Below are positions 3,955 to 43,917 of a stretch of DNA of 64,000 bases, piece by piece. Below the pieces are notes generated by a model that was not told the DNA's origin, searched no databases, and saw only the letters and a program-made list of their open reading frames with translations. Where the stretch lies: contig NZ_CP141615.1 in the NCBI RefSeq assembly GCF_035593305.1, positions 2,573,722 to 2,637,721 on the forward strand, read 5' to 3'. The DNA comes from Limnochorda sp. L945t (GTDB taxonomy: Bacteria > Bacillota > Limnochordia > Limnochordales > Geochordaceae). The first letter of the stretch is position 1; every line of letters begins with the position of its first letter. The position numbers were made by a program, and so were the translations under genes.

Positions 3955-3983
3955 TTGTGTTGCGGGGGGCTGGCGGGTATAAT
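3955..3983 (+). promoter_or_regulatory. Sigma-A-type promoter of the aminotransferase-AAR fusion gene
   Basis: A perfect TATAAT at 3978-3983 lies 17 bases after TTGTGT (3955-3960, three of six matches to TTGACA). Transcription would start near 3990, immediately before or within the inverted repeat at 3993-4022, and about 60 bases before the ATG at 4050. Confidence 0.75.
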
Positions 3984-3992
3984 GCCGCCATA

Positions 3993-4022
3993 CGGGATGT
4001 GCACAAAATCGTGCACATCCCG
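3993..4022. promoter_or_regulatory. Perfect 12-bp inverted repeat, probable operator
   Basis: CGGGATGTGCAC (3993-4004), six bases AAAATC, then GTGCACATCCCG (4011-4022). The arms are exact reverse complements and lie just downstream of the TATAAT box, so a bound dimeric repressor would block transcription; as RNA it would form a 12-bp hairpin in the 5' leader. The cognate regulator is not recognisable in the window. Confidence 0.75.
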
Positions 4023-4049
4023 TGCAAGCTCCACGTGGGAGGGTCATCC

Positions 4050-6698
4050 ATGAGTAGCCGGCCTGCCGCGTCCCACCCCTTCGTCTCGCTGGTCAACCCG
4101 GAGGTCGGCCGCTTGCTCGAGCGGCTCCGCATGGACAAGCGCTTCGTGCGGGGCGAGGGTGCCTGGCTGTGGGACGAGCACGGACGCCGCTACCTCGACT
4201 GCATCGCCAACTATGGGGCGCTTCCCTTCGGCTACAACCCGCCGGAGATCTGGGACGCCCTGATGGCGGTGCGGGACCGCCGGGAGCCGAGCTTCGTACA
4301 GCCCTCGCTGCTGGAAGCGGCGGGAGCCCTCGCCGAGCGTCTCGTGGCCCTTGCTCCGAAGCCCCTGCGTTACGTGACGTTCACCAACTCCGGGGCGGAG
4401 GCGATCGAGGCGGCCATCAAGATGTGCCGGGCGGCCACCGGCCGGCGCCGCATCCTCGCCACGTTCAACAGCTTCCACGGCAAGACCCTGGGAGCTCTCT
4501 CCGCCACGGGCAGGCCTGCCTACCAGGGGCCCTTCGGCGCACCCGTCGAGGGGTTCGACTTCATTCCTTACGGGGACGCCTCGGTGCTCGAGCAGGCCCT
4601 CGAAAGCCGCCCCAGGGAGTACGCGGCGTTCATCGTGGAGCCCATCCAGGGGGAGGGCGGGATCGTGGTGCCGCCGCCCGGCTATTTGCGGGCGGCCCGG
4701 GAGATCACGGCCCGTCACGGGGTGTTGCTCGTCTTCGACGAGATCCAGACGGGGCTGGGACGCACGGGAAGGCTGTTCGCCTGCGAAGAGGAGGGCGTCA
4801 CGCCCGACGTCATGACCCTGGCGAAGGCGCTCGGCGGGGGGCTGGTGCCCATCGGCGCCTGCCTCGCCACCGAAGCGGCGGCGAGCGAGGCCTTCTTCAC
4901 CAAACACTCTTCCACGTTCGCAGGCGGGGCGCTCGCCTGCCGGGCGGGGCTCGCCGCGCTCGATCTGCTCACCAGGGACGATGGCGCCCTGCTGGCCCGG
5001 GTGCGGGAGCGGGGCCGCCAGCTCGAGCAGGGGCTCCGGGCCATCGCCGCGCGCTACCCGCACGTGGTGCGAGAGGTGCGCGGGCGAGGGCTCATGCTCG
5101 GCATCGAGTTTCACGTCGCCCCGGGCACTTTCTCCGGGCGCACCCCTGGCACGCTCCTGCCCGTGATGTCGGAGCAAGAGCTCCTGACCCCGGTCATCGC
5201 CAGCCACCTCCTGGACGTCGAAGGCGTGCGGGTCGCCCCCACCCTCAACGGCCAGAGCGTGATCCGCATCGAGCCGCCGTTGACCTTGACCGCAGAGCAG
5301 GCCGGCATCGCCCTCGAGGCGATCGAGCGGGTCGTGGCCCTGGTAGCAGCCGGCCGCACCGGCGAGTTGCTGCGCCACCTGCTCGGTGAGGGACCTTCGC
5401 GGCACGCCGGACCTGCCGGCGTCCCGACGCACCAGGCCGCGAGCGGCACTTCCGCTGAGGCAGGCAGCTCAAAGGAGCAGCCTCCCTGGCACGATCCGTC
5501 GTTCCCGGCCGGGGCGGCCGGCGCTTTGCCGGCTCCCAACGGGCACCTGGCGCACCCTTCGGGAGACGCCGAGGAAGGCCGCTTCGCCTTCCTGGTGCAT
5601 CCGCTCGACGTCGACAACTACCGGGAGTTCGACGAGGCGCTGGCGGCGCTGTCGCAGGAAGAGCTGGAGCAACTCGCCGACCGGTTCAACCCGATGCTGG
5701 AGCCCTTCGTCATCGGGAGGACCCGCTTCACCTCGTCGGCCGGCCGGAGCGCTTACGGCGAGTTCATCGTGGTGCCCCGCACCACCGGGCAGATCATCGG
5801 GGGCAACCGGGCCGAGGTGCTGGATCTCATCCGCCAGGCGGTCTTGCTCGGCCGGGACCGGGGAGCCCGCATCGTCGGGCTGGGGGCTTACACGGCCATC
5901 GCATCCCGGGGCGGGCTGCAGGTCACCGACCTGGGCGTCGCGGTGACCACGGGCAACAGCTATACCGTGGCCGCGGCCATCGAGGCGCTGATGGAAGGGG
6001 CTCGGCGCCTCGGGGTGGACGTGCGCCGGGCACAGGCCGCGGTGGTCGGGGCCGGCGGCGCGATCGGGCGGGCCACGGCGCTGTTGCTCGCCCCCCACGT
6101 GGCCGGCCTGACGCTGGTCGGTAACCCCACCTCGGGCCAGCGCGGCCTGCAGCGTCTCGTGGCGGTGCGCGACGAGGCGGCCGGCTACCCGGGGAGCGAC
6201 CCCGAGCGGCAGGTCACGGTGACCACGGACGCCGCCGCTGCCCTGTCCGAAGCGCAGCTCGTGGTGATCGCCACCAACTCGGCCGAGGAGTTCGTGGGGC
6301 CGGAGATGCTGGCGGCGGGGGCGGTGGTGTGCGACATGTCCCGGCCGCCCAACGTGAGCCGCCGGGTGGAGCGGGAGCGCCCGGACGTGCTGGTCATCGA
6401 TGGCGGCGTGATCGAGGTGCCGGGGCGCCCCGACTTCGGATGGTACTTCGGCTACGAGCAGGGCCTGGCCTACGCCTGCATGTCCGAGACCATGATGCTG
6501 GCCCTAGAGCACCACTACCACCACACCAGCCTGGGCGCCGACCTCACCATCGAGACCATCCGGTGGATGCAGGAGCTGGCGCGCCGCCACGGCTTCCGCC
6601 TGGCCGAGCTGCGCAGCTTCGACCGGCCCATCACGCCGCCGCGGTGGGAAGAGCTGCTTGCCGCCCGTGGGCAACGGGCGGCCGCGCCTGCTCGATGA
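4050..6698 (+). CDS. Fusion protein: class III PLP aminotransferase plus acyl-ACP-reductase (AAR)-like dehydrogenase
   Basis: 882 residues from an ATG with GGGAGGG 7 bases upstream. Residues about 15-435 are a complete class III aminotransferase: NSGAEAIE (113-120), VFDEIQTG with Asp230, and TLAKALGGG with the PLP-binding Lys259. A low-complexity linker (about 440-510) joins a second domain (about 511-880) that resembles long-chain acyl-ACP reductase: GLGAYTAI, TTGNSYTVAAAIEAL, the Rossmann motif VVGAGGAIGRA (665-675), and Cys761 in VVCDMSRPPN, which aligns by eye with the acyl-accepting Cys of cyanobacterial AAR. If both halves act in series, an activated acyl group would be reduced to an aldehyde and then transaminated to a primary amine; this is inference. 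Alternatives are ornithine/GABA-type transamination linked to another dehydrogenation. It is monocistronic, with its own promoter and operator. Confidence 0.8.
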   Translation: MSSRPAASHPFVSLVNPEVGRLLERLRMDKRFVRGEGAWLWDEHGRRYLDCIANYGALPFGYNPPEIWDALMAVRDRREPSFVQPSLLEAAGALAERLVALAPKPLRYVTFTNSGAEAIEAAIKMCRAATGRRRILATFNSFHGKTLGALSATGRPAYQGPFGAPVEGFDFIPYGDASVLEQALESRPREYAAFIVEPIQGEGGIVVPPPGYLRAAREITARHGVLLVFDEIQTGLGRTGRLFACEEEGVTPDVMTLAKALGGGLVPIGACLATEAAASEAFFTKHSSTFAGGALACRAGLAALDLLTRDDGALLARVRERGRQLEQGLRAIAARYPHVVREVRGRGLMLGIEFHVAPGTFSGRTPGTLLPVMSEQELLTPVIASHLLDVEGVRVAPTLNGQSVIRIEPPLTLTAEQAGIALEAIERVVALVAAGRTGELLRHLLGEGPSRHAGPAGVPTHQAASGTSAEAGSSKEQPPWHDPSFPAGAAGALPAPNGHLAHPSGDAEEGRFAFLVHPLDVDNYREFDEALAALSQEELEQLADRFNPMLEPFVIGRTRFTSSAGRSAYGEFIVVPRTTGQIIGGNRAEVLDLIRQAVLLGRDRGARIVGLGAYTAIASRGGLQVTDLGVAVTTGNSYTVAAAIEALMEGARRLGVDVRRAQAAVVGAGGAIGRATALLLAPHVAGLTLVGNPTSGQRGLQRLVAVRDEAAGYPGSDPERQVTVTTDAAAALSEAQLVVIATNSAEEFVGPEMLAAGAVVCDMSRPPNVSRRVERERPDVLVIDGGVIEVPGRPDFGWYFGYEQGLAYACMSETMMLALEHHYHHTSLGADLTIETIRWMQELARRHGFRLAELRSFDRPITPPRWEELLAARGQRAAAPAR

Positions 6699-6747: not shown

Positions 6748-7845
6748 TCACGGCCGCGGCCGCGCCGCCAGCCGGCGCACCAGCACCGGCAACGCCAGGA
6801 GCTGCAGGGCGAAGCCCGGAAGGCCGGAGAGCAGGGCTCCTTGCACGTAGGCCAGCCCGGGCACCTTCAGGCCGATCCACGGCCCGAGCCCTATGGCCGC
6901 TGCGCCCAGGGCCACTCGCCCGGCCAGGATGGCTGCGGCCAGCCACAAATATTCGGCCCCCAGGCTGGCCCGCCCCGCGGCCTGCCGGGCCGCAGCCAGA
7001 CTCCGTACCCATCCTGCCACCCACCCGGCCGCCGCCAGCTCGATGGCCATGAGCGGGGCTATCGGCGGCACCAGGGGCGGCATGCCCGTCAGGAAATACG
7101 ATAGCAGCGGCGCCAGGGCGCCGGCGACCAGGCCGACCGCCGCCCCGCCCAGCGCGCCCCCTACCAGCACGGGCCAGTGCATGGGCAGGAAAACCGGGCC
7201 TACCCCCAGCGGGTGCAAGAGCACCGGCACCAACACGGCCAGTGCCGTCCAGAGGGCGGCCCGGGTGATCCACTGCACCCCGGGACGGCCTCGCGCCCGA
7301 AGGCGGCCCCCGGCCGCCCTCTCGGCCCCGGCCCGCTGCCTTCCCATGCGCTCGGCCGCCCGCTCCAGAGCGCGCAGCGCCGCCTCGGGCTCCTCGACGT
7401 CTCGTACTGCCGCCTCGAACGGGCAGAGGTCGGTGCCGGCCTGGTTGAGGACCCGGGGAATGGCCACTCCATAGCTGAACGGCACGCGGCGCCGGGTCGC
7501 TTCCTCGATGGCCGCCTCGCTCATGAACTCCCCATGGACGGCTCTGACACCGGTGGCAAGGGCGGCCATCAAGGCGGCTCGCCCCACGACCTTGTCGGCG
7601 AGCGAGGCGCCCGCGAGCTCGCCCCGGCCCACGCGCCGGATGGTGGCCACCAGGGGCAGCACCCCGTGGCCTTCACCGGACGCCACGATGCGGCCGTCGC
7701 GGGCGAAGACGTGGCTCCAGCGCCCTTCCCGGAGCACCTGCACGGCCAGCTCGAGGTCGCTGCCGAGCGCCTCCTGCTGCCTACGCCGGGAGGGGGAAGA
7801 GAGGGACGAGTCCTTCGGCTCGCCGGTAAAGTCGATCACGTTCAT
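6748..7845 (-). CDS. DUF1893 (deaminase-fold) domain fused to an ECF transporter S-component-like membrane domain
   Basis: 365 residues. Residues about 30-165 match DUF1893/TM1506-like proteins: LELAVQVLREG, VLPLVATIRRVG, GASLADKVVGRAALM, MSEAAIEEA and a final GTDLCPFEAAV block; this domain has a cytidine-deaminase-like fold of unknown role. A basic linker leads to five or six hydrophobic segments (about 190-360) with the compact, Ala/Gly-rich look of ECF transporter substrate-binding (S) subunits such as FolT/QueT, including FLPMHWPVLVGG and MPPLVPPIAPLMAIE. Such subunits capture a vitamin or base and work with a shared ATPase module, which is not encoded nearby. Start ATG at 7845 follows GAGCGAGG and overlaps the upstream aldo/keto reductase by 65 bases. 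The substrate is unknown. Confidence 0.75.
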   Translation of the reverse strand: MNVIDFTGEPKDSSLSSPSRRRQQEALGSDLELAVQVLREGRWSHVFARDGRIVASGEGHGVLPLVATIRRVGRGELAGASLADKVVGRAALMAALATGVRAVHGEFMSEAAIEEATRRRVPFSYGVAIPRVLNQAGTDLCPFEAAVRDVEEPEAALRALERAAERMGRQRAGAERAAGGRLRARGRPGVQWITRAALWTALAVLVPVLLHPLGVGPVFLPMHWPVLVGGALGGAAVGLVAGALAPLLSYFLTGMPPLVPPIAPLMAIELAAAGWVAGWVRSLAAARQAAGRASLGAEYLWLAAAILAGRVALGAAAIGLGPWIGLKVPGLAYVQGALLSGLPGFALQLLALPVLVRRLAARPRP

Positions 7846-40658: not shown

Positions 40659-41987
40659 TCAGCCTGCGGCTGCGGCGAACGCTGCCCGGGCAGCCTCCGT
40701 CACTTCGCCGGTGACCCGCTCGTCGTGGGCCGTGGACAGGAAGATGGCCTCCAGCATGGCCGGGGCCAGGTGCACCCCGCGCTCCAGCATGGCGTGGAAA
40801 AAGCGCGCGTAAGCGCCGGCGTCGCCTTCCTGCGCCTCGGTGAAGTCCTGGGGCGCCTGGGCGCGAAACGATAATCCCAGCATCGCGCCGACCTGGACGA
40901 CGGAGACGCAGGCCCCGGCCTCCTTCGCTGCCTGGCGCAGCCCGTCCGCCAGCCGCCGCGCACGGGCCTCCAGGCACTCGTAGATCCCTTCCTCCCTCTG
41001 GAGTTCCCGGAGCGTCGCAAGCCCCGCCGCGACCGCGATGGGGTTGCCCGAGAGGGTGCCGGCCTGGTACACGGGACCCTGCGGGGCGACCAGCTCCATG
41101 AGCTCCCGGCGGCCCGCGTACGCGCCGGCGGGAAGCCCACCCCCCATGATCTTGCCGAGGCAGGTGAGATCCGGTTGGACGCCGAAGCGGCCCTGCGCTC
41201 CGCTCCATCCCACCCGGAAGCCCGTGATGACCTCGTCGAAGATCAGCAGGCTCCCGTTACGGCGCGTGATGGCGCGCAGGCCCTCCAGGAAACCCGGTTT
41301 GGGCAGGACGACCCCCATGTTGGCGGCCACCGGCTCCACGATCACGGCGGCGATCTCCTGGCCCCAGCGGGAAAAGAGCGCCTCCACGTCTTCGAGGTGA
41401 TTGTAACGTGCAAGCAGCGTCTCACCGGCCGCGCCGGGGCTCACTCCGGGGGAGGCCGGCGAGACGGAGGTTGCTCCCGCCCAGGTGGGGGCTGCTCCTC
41501 CGCCGGCCGAGTACAGGGCCGCCCCGGAGCCGGCCTTGACCAGCATCGCATCCGAGTGGCCGTGGTAGCACCCCTCGAACTTCACCACGTAGCGGCGGCC
41601 GGTCGCTGCCCGGCTCAACCGCACGGCGCTCATGACGGCCTCGGTGCCGGAGTTGACCAGCCTCACCATCTCGACGGACGGTAGCGCCGAGGCGATCAGC
41701 TCGGCGAGCTCCACCTCGGCGGTGGTCGGCATCCCGAAGCTGGTGCCCGACGCGGCGGCCCGCTGCACCGCCTCCACGACGGCCGGGTGGGCGTGGCCCA
41801 GGATGAGCGCCCCCCACGACTGCACCAGGTCCACGTAGCGGCGGCCGCTCACGTCCCAGACGTAAGGCCCCTCGCCTCGTGCGGCGAACACCGGGGTACC
41901 CCCTACCGCCCGAAACGCCCGGACCGGGCTGTTGACGCCACCCGGCATGACTCTGCGGGCTCGTTCCCACCACTGTGGGGTTTCCAC
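40659..41987 (-). CDS. hemL: Glutamate-1-semialdehyde 2,1-aminomutase
   Basis: 442 residues, PLP enzyme converting glutamate-1-semialdehyde to 5-aminolevulinate. Typical blocks: MPGGVNSPVRAFRAVGG, SWGALILGHAHPAV, NSGTEAVMSAVRLSRAATGR, GCYHGHSD, LLIFDEVITGFRVG (Asp251) and CLGKIMGGGLPAGAY with the PLP Lys279. A Gly/Ala/Pro-rich stretch (about 153-187) is slightly longer than usual. GTG 41987 with GGGAGGGGG upstream. Last gene of the heme operon; follows hemB by 50 bases. Confidence 0.95.
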   Translation of the reverse strand: METPQWWERARRVMPGGVNSPVRAFRAVGGTPVFAARGEGPYVWDVSGRRYVDLVQSWGALILGHAHPAVVEAVQRAAASGTSFGMPTTAEVELAELIASALPSVEMVRLVNSGTEAVMSAVRLSRAATGRRYVVKFEGCYHGHSDAMLVKAGSGAALYSAGGGAAPTWAGATSVSPASPGVSPGAAGETLLARYNHLEDVEALFSRWGQEIAAVIVEPVAANMGVVLPKPGFLEGLRAITRRNGSLLIFDEVITGFRVGWSGAQGRFGVQPDLTCLGKIMGGGLPAGAYAGRRELMELVAPQGPVYQAGTLSGNPIAVAAGLATLRELQREEGIYECLEARARRLADGLRQAAKEAGACVSVVQVGAMLGLSFRAQAPQDFTEAQEGDAGAYARFFHAMLERGVHLAPAMLEAIFLSTAHDERVTGEVTEAARAAFAAAAG

Positions 41988-42037
41988 GCGCGTCCCCCTC
42001 CCCGCCGTGCGGCTTCTCCCCCTCGGCGGCGCGGGCT

Positions 42038-43078
42038 TCAGCCTTCCCGCAGCCACCGCGCCGCCTGCGATGCGTAGTACGTGATGATCAGGTCGGCGCC
42101 GGCCCGGGCCATGGAGGTCAGCATCTCGAGCACGATCGGGCGCCGGTCGATCCAACCCCGGGCGGCCGCCGCCTCGACCATCGCGTACTCGCCGCTGACG
42201 TTGTAGGCCGCCAGCGGCACGGTCGTCCGGTCGCGAAGCTGCCGCAGCACGTCCAGATAGGCCAGAGCCGGCTTGACCATCACGATGTCGGCCCCCTGCG
42301 CCAGGTCCAGGTCCACCTCCCGCAGCGCCTCCCGGGCGTTGGGCGGGTCCATCTGGTAGGCCCTCCGGTCGCCGAAAGCGGGCGCAGACCCCGCGGCCTC
42401 CCGGAACGGCCCGTAGAACGCCGAGGCGAACTTGGCCGAATAACCCATGATGGCGACGTCTTCGTACCCTTCGGCGTCCAGCGCCTCCCGGATGGCCGCC
42501 ACCTGGCCGTCCATCATGGCGCTCGGCGCCACGACGTCGGCTCCCGCACGGGCGTGCGAGAGGGCGGTAGCCGCCAGGCGGGGCAGAGTCGCGTCGTTGT
42601 CCACCTCCACCTGGCCGCGGCGCTCCCGCAGGATGCCGCAGTGGCCGTGCTCCGTGTACTCGCAGAGGCAGACGTCGGTGATCACCACCAGCTCCGGCAA
42701 GCGCTGCTTGAGGCGGCGCACCGCCTGCTGCACGACGCCCTCGGGGTCGTCCGCGCCGCTCCCGCGCGGGTCTTTGCTCGCGGGGATCCCGAAGAGCAGC
42801 ACGGCCTGCACGCCCGCCTCGAGCGCCTCGGATGCCGCCTGCTCCACCCGGTCGACCGGCCAGCGCATCACGCCGGGCATCGACTCCACCGGCTCCGGGG
42901 GGATGCCCGCCGGATGCACGAAACAGGGCTGGATCAGTTGCTCCGGAGAAAGGCGCACCTCCCGCACCATCGACCTCAAGGCTGCCGTGCGGCGAAGCCG
43001 CCGGGGGCGCACCGCCGCGCCCCTGGCCCGCGCCCCGTCGCCGGGCCGGCTGCCCGGGCTTCCCGTCCACACGCTCAT
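42038..43078 (-). CDS. hemB: Porphobilinogen synthase (5-aminolevulinate dehydratase)
   Basis: 346 residues; condenses two 5-aminolevulinates to porphobilinogen. Opening RPRRLRRTAALRSMVRE is typical. The active-site zinc cysteines are Cys137, Cys139 and Cys147 in DVCLCEYTEHGHCGIL, so this is the zinc-dependent type. Schiff-base lysines are Lys216 (MGYSAKFASAFYGPFR) and Lys269 (MVKPALAYLD). An extra basic N-terminus of about 20 residues precedes the domain. ATG 43078 overlaps the hemD stop (ATGA). Confidence 0.96.
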   Translation of the reverse strand: MSVWTGSPGSRPGDGARARGAAVRPRRLRRTAALRSMVREVRLSPEQLIQPCFVHPAGIPPEPVESMPGVMRWPVDRVEQAASEALEAGVQAVLLFGIPASKDPRGSGADDPEGVVQQAVRRLKQRLPELVVITDVCLCEYTEHGHCGILRERRGQVEVDNDATLPRLAATALSHARAGADVVAPSAMMDGQVAAIREALDAEGYEDVAIMGYSAKFASAFYGPFREAAGSAPAFGDRRAYQMDPPNAREALREVDLDLAQGADIVMVKPALAYLDVLRQLRDRTTVPLAAYNVSGEYAMVEAAAARGWIDRRPIVLEMLTSMARAGADLIITYYASQAARWLREG

Positions 43079-43917
43079 CGCCCTTGCCCGTCCCCTTCCA
43101 TCCGAAGCTCTTGCCAGGCTCGCGCGCACGCCGCCGCCAGCGCCTCGGGCGATGGCGACGTGGCCTGCTCGACCCGCCACCCCGCGCCGAGCGCCGCGCC
43201 CGCCGTCGTCGGCCCGATGGCCACCACCCGCACGCGCCCGGGCGGCGGGCCTTTGAGGTGGGCCGTGACGGCACAGACGGCGCTCGGGGATGCCGCCACC
43301 AGCACGTCGACCTCGCCCGAGCGCACCAAGGCGGCGGCCCGCGCTGCGTTGGCCGGGTCGTCCAGGGTGCGGTACGCTTCGACGCGCACCACTGTGGCGC
43401 CGCCCGCGGCGAGCTCTCGCTGCAGCATCTCGTCCGCCCGATCCCCGACGGCCAGCAGGATCCGGGCCCCCTGCAGGTGCCCGCACCGGGCCAGCGCGGC
43501 AGGTATGGCAGCCGCCCGGGGCTCGTCCGGCATGCAGTCGACCCGTACGTGCGCCGCTTCCAGCGCCCTGCGGGTCGCCGCCCCCACCGCGCAGACCCGA
43601 GCCGGCAGCTGCCCGCCGGCGCCTCCTGCGGGAGCCGCTTGCTCGCCCGCGGCGGCCGCTCCCCTGCCGGGAGCCACCGCCCGCAGGGCCTCGGCCAGGG
43701 CCTGGGCGCCGTTGGGGCTCGTGACCACGATCCAGTCGAAACAGCCCTCCCATGCTTCCCGGCACGCCCGCCGCAACGCCTCCGGGTCATCGGGGGGAGC
43801 GATCCGCAGCACCGGGACAGGAGTCACCCGCGCCCCCTCCGCTTCCAGGGCCGCAACCGCCGGGCCGGCCTGGTGGGCGGGCCGCGTCACCAGCACCCTA
43901 CACCCCGAAAGGCGCAT
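43075..43917 (-). CDS. hemD: Uroporphyrinogen-III synthase
   Basis: 280 residues; closes hydroxymethylbilane with inversion of ring D. The family is poorly conserved, but the two-domain pattern is clear: RVLVTRPAHQAGPAVAALEAEG, DWIVVTSPNGAQALAEAL, RVCAVGAATRRALE, ILLAVGDRADEMLQREL, VRVEAYRTLD, VDVLVAASPSAVCAVTAHL and VVAIGPTTAGAALGAGW. ATG 43917 (GGGGAGG seven bases upstream) is preferred over TTG 43920. It overlaps the hemC end by 20 bases. Confidence 0.93.
   Translation of the reverse strand: MRLSGCRVLVTRPAHQAGPAVAALEAEGARVTPVPVLRIAPPDDPEALRRACREAWEGCFDWIVVTSPNGAQALAEALRAVAPGRGAAAAGEQAAPAGGAGGQLPARVCAVGAATRRALEAAHVRVDCMPDEPRAAAIPAALARCGHLQGARILLAVGDRADEMLQRELAAGGATVVRVEAYRTLDDPANAARAAALVRSGEVDVLVAASPSAVCAVTAHLKGPPPGRVRVVAIGPTTAGAALGAGWRVEQATSPSPEALAAACARAWQELRMEGDGQGR

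What the first reader, a model, noticed from the sequence alone, without database searches (positions are those of the whole stretch)
4050..6698. Class III aminotransferase fused to an acyl-ACP-reductase-like domain: a possible one-protein route from acyl thioester to primary amine
The N-half has an intact PLP site (Asp230, Lys259). The C-half has the AAR-like GLGAYTAI, TTGNSYTV and Rossmann VVGAGGAIG motifs and a Cys (761) at the position of the AAR acyl-accepting Cys. Reduction of an acyl thioester to an aldehyde followed by transamination would yield an amine, chemistry usually split over two enzymes.
Basis: partly seen in the sequence, partly recalled or inferred. Interest (0 to 1): 0.75.

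Follow-up and report, generated by a model that had tools for sequence, protein, structure and literature searches.

The report
Acyl-reductase/aminotransferase fusion, TamH type
This bacterial gene encodes a two-in-one enzyme of an already characterised kind (TamH, KecF, Thermaerobacter fusions) that probably turns a carrier-bound acyl chain into an aldehyde and then an amine; what is new is that here it looks like a core gene under its own small switch, not part of an antibiotic cluster, and its product is unknown.

Summary
The ORF at 4050-6698 (+, 882 aa) is real. Its N-half is a class III aminotransferase. Its C-half is a homologue of cyanobacterial acyl-ACP reductase (AAR) and matches AAR and PigE far better than shikimate or ornithine-type dehydrogenases. 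The arrangement is not new. PtTamH (same domain order, acyl-ACP to aldehyde to amine shown in vitro), KecF/PpKTFusion, PigE (reverse order) and Thermaerobacter/Thermincola fusions are published. New here is the setting. The gene is outside any biosynthetic cluster, in a genome with one full-length ketosynthase hit. An AAR-like domain occurs in 57 of 61 genomes of the class, fused (34) or standalone (23), never both. The standalone form sits in an HTH-X-AAR operon. A palindromic operator, GTGCAC-N6-GTGCAC, occurs exactly twice in the 3.31-Mb genome: before this gene and before the distant HTH-X operon. In a sister family with separate genes, near-copies precede the standalone aminotransferase in 3 of 3 genomes. 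Most likely a TamH-type acyl-thioester reductase/transaminase in a small dedicated regulon. Product and acyl substrate are unknown; nothing was assayed.

The parts
4050..6698 (+). Fused class III aminotransferase / AAR-like acyl-thioester reductase, 882 aa
   Evidence: orthologous fusions in L039-L058 and L066-L145
4146..5336 (+). Class III PLP aminotransferase domain (residues 33-429)
   Evidence: Pfam PF00202 E 1.6e-91; AlphaFold model matches YgjG 4uox and PigE 4ppm
4737..4739 (+). Asp230, PLP ring-N contact by homology
   Evidence: conserved in all 32 fusions, PigE, standalone and own paralogous aminotransferases
4824..4826 (+). Lys259, PLP Schiff-base lysine by homology
   Evidence: conserved in all 32 fusions
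5394..5540 (+). Interdomain linker, predicted disordered (residues 449-497)
   Evidence: pLDDT < 50 for residues 449-497; PtTamH and PpKTFusion also have 36-50 aa linkers (PMC9594044, PMC10829540)
5580..6629 (+). AAR-like thioester reductase domain (residues 511-860)
6042..6068 (+). Rossmann NAD(P)H-binding motif VVGAGGAIG (residues 665-673)
6477..6479 (+). Cys810, aligned with AAR acyl-accepting Cys294
   Evidence: alignment; invariant 51/51
6330..6332 (+).
3992..4023 (.). Palindromic operator ACGGGATGTGCAC-AAAATC-GTGCACATCCCGT; core GTGCAC-N6-GTGCAC at 3999-4016
   Evidence: perfect 13-bp arms; exact core found only twice in the genome; conserved upstream of the fusion and of the HTH gene in relatives
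3978..3983 (+). TATAAT, possible -10 box 8 nt before the operator
   Evidence: read directly from the sequence; the promoter scan found no pair reaching its threshold
4037..4043 (+). Likely ribosome-binding site GGGAGGG
   Evidence: read directly from the sequence

Best explanation
A TamH-type bifunctional enzyme. The C-terminal AAR-like domain takes an acyl group from a phosphopantetheine carrier (ACP, possibly CoA) onto Cys810 and reduces the thioester with NAD(P)H to an aldehyde. The N-terminal class III aminotransferase (PLP on Lys259, amino donor probably L-Glu) converts that aldehyde to a primary amine. In this lineage it is not part of a natural-product cluster. It belongs to a small regulon with an HTH regulator and a conserved Rossmann-like protein X, joined by the operator GTGCAC-N6-GTGCAC, and is a core gene of the class. 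Shown: domain homology, conserved active-site residues, shared operator, distribution. Inferred: catalysis by this protein, that the HTH protein binds the operator, that X acts in the same pathway. Unknown: acyl chain, cofactor preference, fate of the amine.
For: Both domains match PigE over most of their length (NCBIfam PigE model E 1.3e-169, below that model's own cut-off); C-domain homology to AAR with Cys810 = Cys294. PtTamH, same order, converts C12-ACP to C12-amine via the aldehyde (PMC9594044). Thermaerobacter and Thermincola homologues transaminate aliphatic aldehydes with L-Glu (PMC10829540). Exact operator at two places in the whole genome, reversed-pattern control 0; the same two sites in G001 and G002. 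Operator with <=1 mismatch in 37/77 fusion promoters and 22/26 HTH promoters against 0/147 pooled control promoters. X and AAR-like domain co-occur in 128 of 199 phylum genomes, 3 AAR-only, 24 X-only. In family f4, with unfused genes, the standalone aminotransferase has the operator with one mismatch in 3/3 genomes. One full-length ketosynthase hit in the genome, so no sign of a PKS.
Against: No activity of any kind has been measured for this protein. Prout et al. showed only transaminase activity in the Bacillota homologues and did not test acyl-ACP reduction. No dedicated ACP or acyl-activating gene adjoins the fusion here. About half of the other fusion promoters lack a recognisable operator (for example L092, L081). 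The distribution counts are not independent of phylogeny. L066 is nearly identical to the window, and some loci are the same genome fetched twice. Families f5 and f9 lack the operator at their standalone aminotransferase.
Confidence: 0.8

Rival explanations
1. The two active sites act on a small, non-lipid acyl group (for example an amino-acid or dicarboxylic thioester), so the product is a short diamine or amino acid and not a fatty amine. (This is a variant of the main mechanism, with a different substrate.)
For: The aminotransferase fold is closest to the putrescine aminotransferase YgjG and to PigE. Thermophilic homologues also take alpha-keto acids and 6-aminohexanoate (PMC10829540). The gene is near-universal in the class, which suits a primary metabolite.
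Against: PtTamH prefers C12 (C7-C14 accepted), and AAR acts on long chains. Prout et al. found linear aliphatic aldehydes to be good acceptors.
Confidence: 0.3
2. It makes the amine precursor of a secondary metabolite (prodiginine- or tetrahydropyridine-type alkaloid), as Prout et al. suggest for Thermaerobacter and Thermincola.
For: TamH, KecF and PigE all serve alkaloid clusters; the plasmid PigE-type loci L060, L063 and L065 lie in such clusters.
Against: Only one full-length ketosynthase hit in the whole genome. Neighbours are TerC and a TM1506/ECF protein on the opposite strand. Near-universal, single-copy distribution and a two-site operator suit a core function better.
Confidence: 0.08
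3. Only the aminotransferase is active and the C-domain is a structural or regulatory remnant, so the protein merely transaminates aldehydes or amino acids.
For: Prout et al. measured only transaminase activity; purified PigE gave no thioester reduction in vitro (PMC8341465).
Against: GxxGxxG, GLGxxT, TGN, DGG and Cys810/Glu813 are invariant or nearly so across fused and standalone domains. A standalone, presumably self-sufficient AAR-like gene replaces the fusion in 23 genomes of the class.
Confidence: 0.07

Closest known systems
PtTamH (Pseudoalteromonas tunicata tambjamine pathway; PMC9594044)
   Same: N-terminal class III transaminase, roughly 50-aa linker, C-terminal AAR-family thioester reductase with GxxGxxG and catalytic Cys; acyl-ACP to aldehyde to amine shown
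   Different: Lies in a tambjamine cluster with its own ANL-ACP partner TamA; about 30% identical to the thermophilic fusions according to PMC10829540. The window gene has no such partner nearby
TmFusion / TsFusion / TfFusion (Thermaerobacter marianensis, T. subterraneus, Thermincola ferriacetica; PMC10829540)
   Same: Bacillota fusions of the same order; transaminase activity on aliphatic aldehydes with L-Glu; AAR Cys294 mapped to C909/C815/C824. Probably the same family, but their sequences were not in hand for alignment
   Different: Reductase activity not tested there; authors suggest a secondary-metabolite role, which the present distribution and operator data speak against for this lineage
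KecF / PpKTFusion PP_2782 (koreenceine cluster; PMC6498172, PMC10829540)
   Same: Same domain order and proposed two-step chemistry
   Different: Part of a type II PKS/FAS cluster; makes a tetrahydropyridine alkaloid
PigE (prodigiosin; PDB 4ppm, PMC8341465)
   Same: Same two domains; thioester reduction plus transamination supported in lysate
   Different: Domains in reverse order; sits in the pig cluster; lacks Cys761
Cyanobacterial AAR (PDB 6jzq, 6jzu, 6jzz)
   Same: C-domain homologue, acyl-accepting Cys294 = Cys810
   Different: Standalone; aldehyde goes to a deformylating oxygenase, not to a transaminase

Membership tests
TamH/KecF-type transaminase-AAR fusion | N-terminal class III PLP aminotransferase with Schiff-base Lys | tested here: met
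   PF00202 E 1.6e-91; Lys259 and Asp230 conserved
TamH/KecF-type transaminase-AAR fusion | C-terminal AAR-family domain with GxxGxxG and the Cys294-equivalent Cys | tested here: met
   G667/G670/G673 and Cys810
TamH/KecF-type transaminase-AAR fusion | Reduces acyl-ACP to aldehyde and transaminates it | not testable with these tools
   needs an enzyme assay
Alkaloid-pathway members of that kind (TamH, KecF) | Encoded in a natural-product cluster with its own acyl carrier or PKS | tested here: not met
   neighbours TerC and TM1506/ECF; one full-length ketosynthase hit in the genome. A feature of the published alkaloid members, not of the enzyme kind
PigE (NF053554 equivalog) | Score above the model cut-off of 850 bits and reductase-first domain order | tested here: not met
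   566 bits; order reversed
Acyl-ACP reductase (AAR) | Sequence homology over the whole domain including the Cys294 column | tested here: met
Shikimate or ornithine-type dehydrogenase | Better match than AAR, no acyl Cys | tested here: not met
   Pfam Shikimate_DH 21.0 bits, below its 24.3 cut-off; ornithine cyclodeaminase E 0.002, no shikimate dehydrogenase among the 60 listed hits, against AAR 1.6e-36

The most novel reading that the evidence does not exclude
Limnochordia and many other Bacillota carry a conserved, dedicated regulon (HTH regulator, Rossmann-like protein X, and an acyl-thioester reductase plus aminotransferase, fused or split) that makes an as yet unknown acyl-derived amine as part of core physiology, such as a membrane or cell-envelope amine, and not as an antibiotic.
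Probability: 0.5. Interest if true: 0.62.

Novelty: new member of a known kind. Interest (0 to 1): 0.4.

Why it matters
The enzyme type is known from alkaloid pathways and is wanted for making amines from fatty acids. Finding it as a near-universal, specifically regulated gene in a class without an evident alkaloid cluster suggests a so far unseen core amine or lipid in Bacillota, and names the genes (HTH, X, fusion) and the DNA site needed to test it.

Tried and rejected
Exosortase link: two plasmid-borne relatives lie near VPLPA-CTERM/XrtD genes, but the window genome has no exosortase, so it was dropped for this organism. A simple Rosetta-stone reading (standalone AAR and aminotransferase fused in place) was not upheld: the standalone and fused C-domains form separate clades (support 91 and 89), and the standalone aminotransferase clade coexists with the fusion in f3 and L099. 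I therefore read the f2 loci as displacement of the resident AAR by the fusion. Strict one-per-genome exclusivity holds in the class but not in the wider phylum (for example G071, G128). Protein X: no Pfam, NCBIfam or PDB sequence match; its model (pLDDT 85) gives only weak fold matches to AAR, malic enzymes and sugar-binding proteins, TM about 0.3-0.5, so no function is assigned. The loose operator search with one mismatch gave as many hits as its control and was not used; its list also did not show the exact sites that one search found. The whole-protein Foldseek search lists only aminotransferases, so it says nothing about the C-domain.

Full report
What is there. Window 4050-6698 (+) holds one uninterrupted gene for an 882-residue protein. 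ATG 4050 is preceded by GGGAGGG. Residues 33-429 are a class III aminotransferase (PF00202, E 1.6e-91) with Asp230 and Lys259 in place. Residues 511-860 are homologous to cyanobacterial acyl-ACP reductase (AAR 6jzq E 1.8e-13) and to the reductase half of PigE (4ppm E 5e-26) by single sequence; as a family profile the values are 1.7e-36 and 1.6e-54, while FolD, ornithine cyclodeaminase and malate dehydrogenases trail at 5e-6 or worse. The AlphaFold model is confident for both domains (mean pLDDT 85.6) with a disordered linker at 449-497.

The catalytic cysteine. The alignment puts AAR Cys294 opposite Cys810 in YACMSE; the C294S mutant chain 6jzz shows Ser in that very column. Cys810 is identical in 51 of 51 fused, standalone and PigE domains. 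Cys761 is Ile in AAR and PigE and Leu in two fusions.

Prior art. The fusion and its chemistry are published. PtTamH has the same domain order, an AAR-family reductase and a catalytic Cys, and converts C12-ACP to C12 aldehyde and amine (PMC9594044). KecF is a fusion of the same order in the koreenceine cluster (PMC6498172). PigE has the two domains reversed (PMC8341465). Prout et al. 2024 (PMC10829540) studied Thermaerobacter and Thermincola fusions, showed transaminase activity on aliphatic aldehydes and mapped AAR Cys294 onto them, but did not test acyl-ACP reduction. The window protein is therefore a new member of a known kind.

Distribution. The window genome is 3.31 Mb in one contig; the closest named record is a Limnochordaceae MAG, Bu05 (99% identity over the C-domain). 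In 61 genomes of the class, 57 have an AAR-like domain: 34 fused, 23 standalone, none both, 4 with none found (sorted by reading frame and by the aminotransferase hits). The G001 gene is split by a frame change in the linker and was counted as fused. In the wider phylum 131 of 199 genomes have the domain, and some there have both forms. Fused C-domains fall on one side of a branch (support 89) and standalone ones in another clade (91).

The HTH-X operon. The standalone AAR-like gene lies in a conserved operon, DusB - HTH regulator - X - AAR - GreA - LysS (L146-L160; gene names DusB, GreA and LysS are my reading of the sequences, not a family search). In family f2 the fusion occupies that slot: DusB - HTH - X - fusion - LysS. 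In the window genome HTH-X sits next to GreA-LysS with no AAR gene between them, and the only AAR-like domain in the genome is in the fusion, about 100 kb away. X (about 305 aa, no family match) occurs in 60 of 61 genomes of the class. In the phylum sample X and the AAR-like domain occur together in 128 genomes, AAR without X in 3, X without AAR in 24, neither in 44 (Fisher p 5e-23, not corrected for shared ancestry).

The operator. A perfect palindrome, ACGGGATGTGCAC-N6-GTGCACATCCCGT, lies at 3992-4023, 8 nt after a TATAAT. With at most one mismatch in the core GTGCAC-N6-GTGCAC, it stands upstream of the fusion in 37 of 77 loci and upstream of the HTH gene in 22 of 26, against 0 of 147 pooled promoters of other conserved genes; a gene set divergent from the fusion (c6), which shares its promoter region, was left out of that pool. 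Some loci are the same genome twice, so these counts overstate independence. Exact copies in the whole window genome: two, before the fusion and before HTH-X, with none for the reversed control pattern. G001 has the same two plus one other, and G002 the same two. In family f4, where aminotransferase and AAR are separate genes, the standalone aminotransferase has a one-mismatch copy upstream in 3 of 3 genomes (L164, L225, L228), and one f4 HTH promoter has an exact copy (L159). The simplest reading is that the HTH protein represses its own operon and the fusion. That is inferred; binding was not tested.

What it probably does. Acyl thioester + NAD(P)H -> aldehyde (Cys810), aldehyde + amino donor -> amine (Lys259). 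The genome has one full-length ketosynthase hit and no alkaloid-type neighbours, so the acyl group most likely comes from ordinary fatty-acid or CoA metabolism. The chain length, cofactor and fate of the amine are open. Prout et al. proposed a secondary-metabolite role for related enzymes; the core distribution and dedicated operator argue for a housekeeping role here.

Limits. Nothing was assayed. TamH, KecF and TmFusion sequences were not in hand, so their relation to the window protein rests on the papers and on PigE/AAR. Trees were quick builds without bootstrap. The count of standalone aminotransferases in split against fused genomes (18 of 23 against 2 of 34) was read from a truncated list and is approximate.

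Noticed in passing
window 3992-4023; G000:C1:2474392-2474409 (L170/L204): Palindromic operator GTGCAC-N6-GTGCAC shared by the fusion and a distant HTH-X operon; only two exact copies in the genome.
   Followed up: yes
L170:7872-9367 (-): HTH regulator and protein X (no Pfam match), a near-universal gene pair of the class next to GreA-LysS; function unknown.
   Followed up: partly
window 40659-43790 (-): A second class III aminotransferase in the window; the C-terminal part reads like glutamate-1-semialdehyde aminomutase. The long upstream extension is probably a spurious high-GC frame.
   Followed up: partly
window 6748-7845 (-): Protein with a TM1506 (DUF1893) domain joined to an ECF-transporter-like membrane part.
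   Followed up: no
L061:9959-14146: Leisingera plasmid fusion of 1395 aa with about 500 extra C-terminal residues, beside an MMPL transporter and adenylate-forming genes.
   Followed up: no
L059, L062: Alphaproteobacterial relatives of the fusion lie beside VPLPA-CTERM/exosortase or VPLPA-CTERM genes on plasmids.
   Followed up: partly
L039:7871-10539 (-): In G001 the gene is split into two overlapping frames in the linker; sequencing error or real split not resolved.
   Followed up: no
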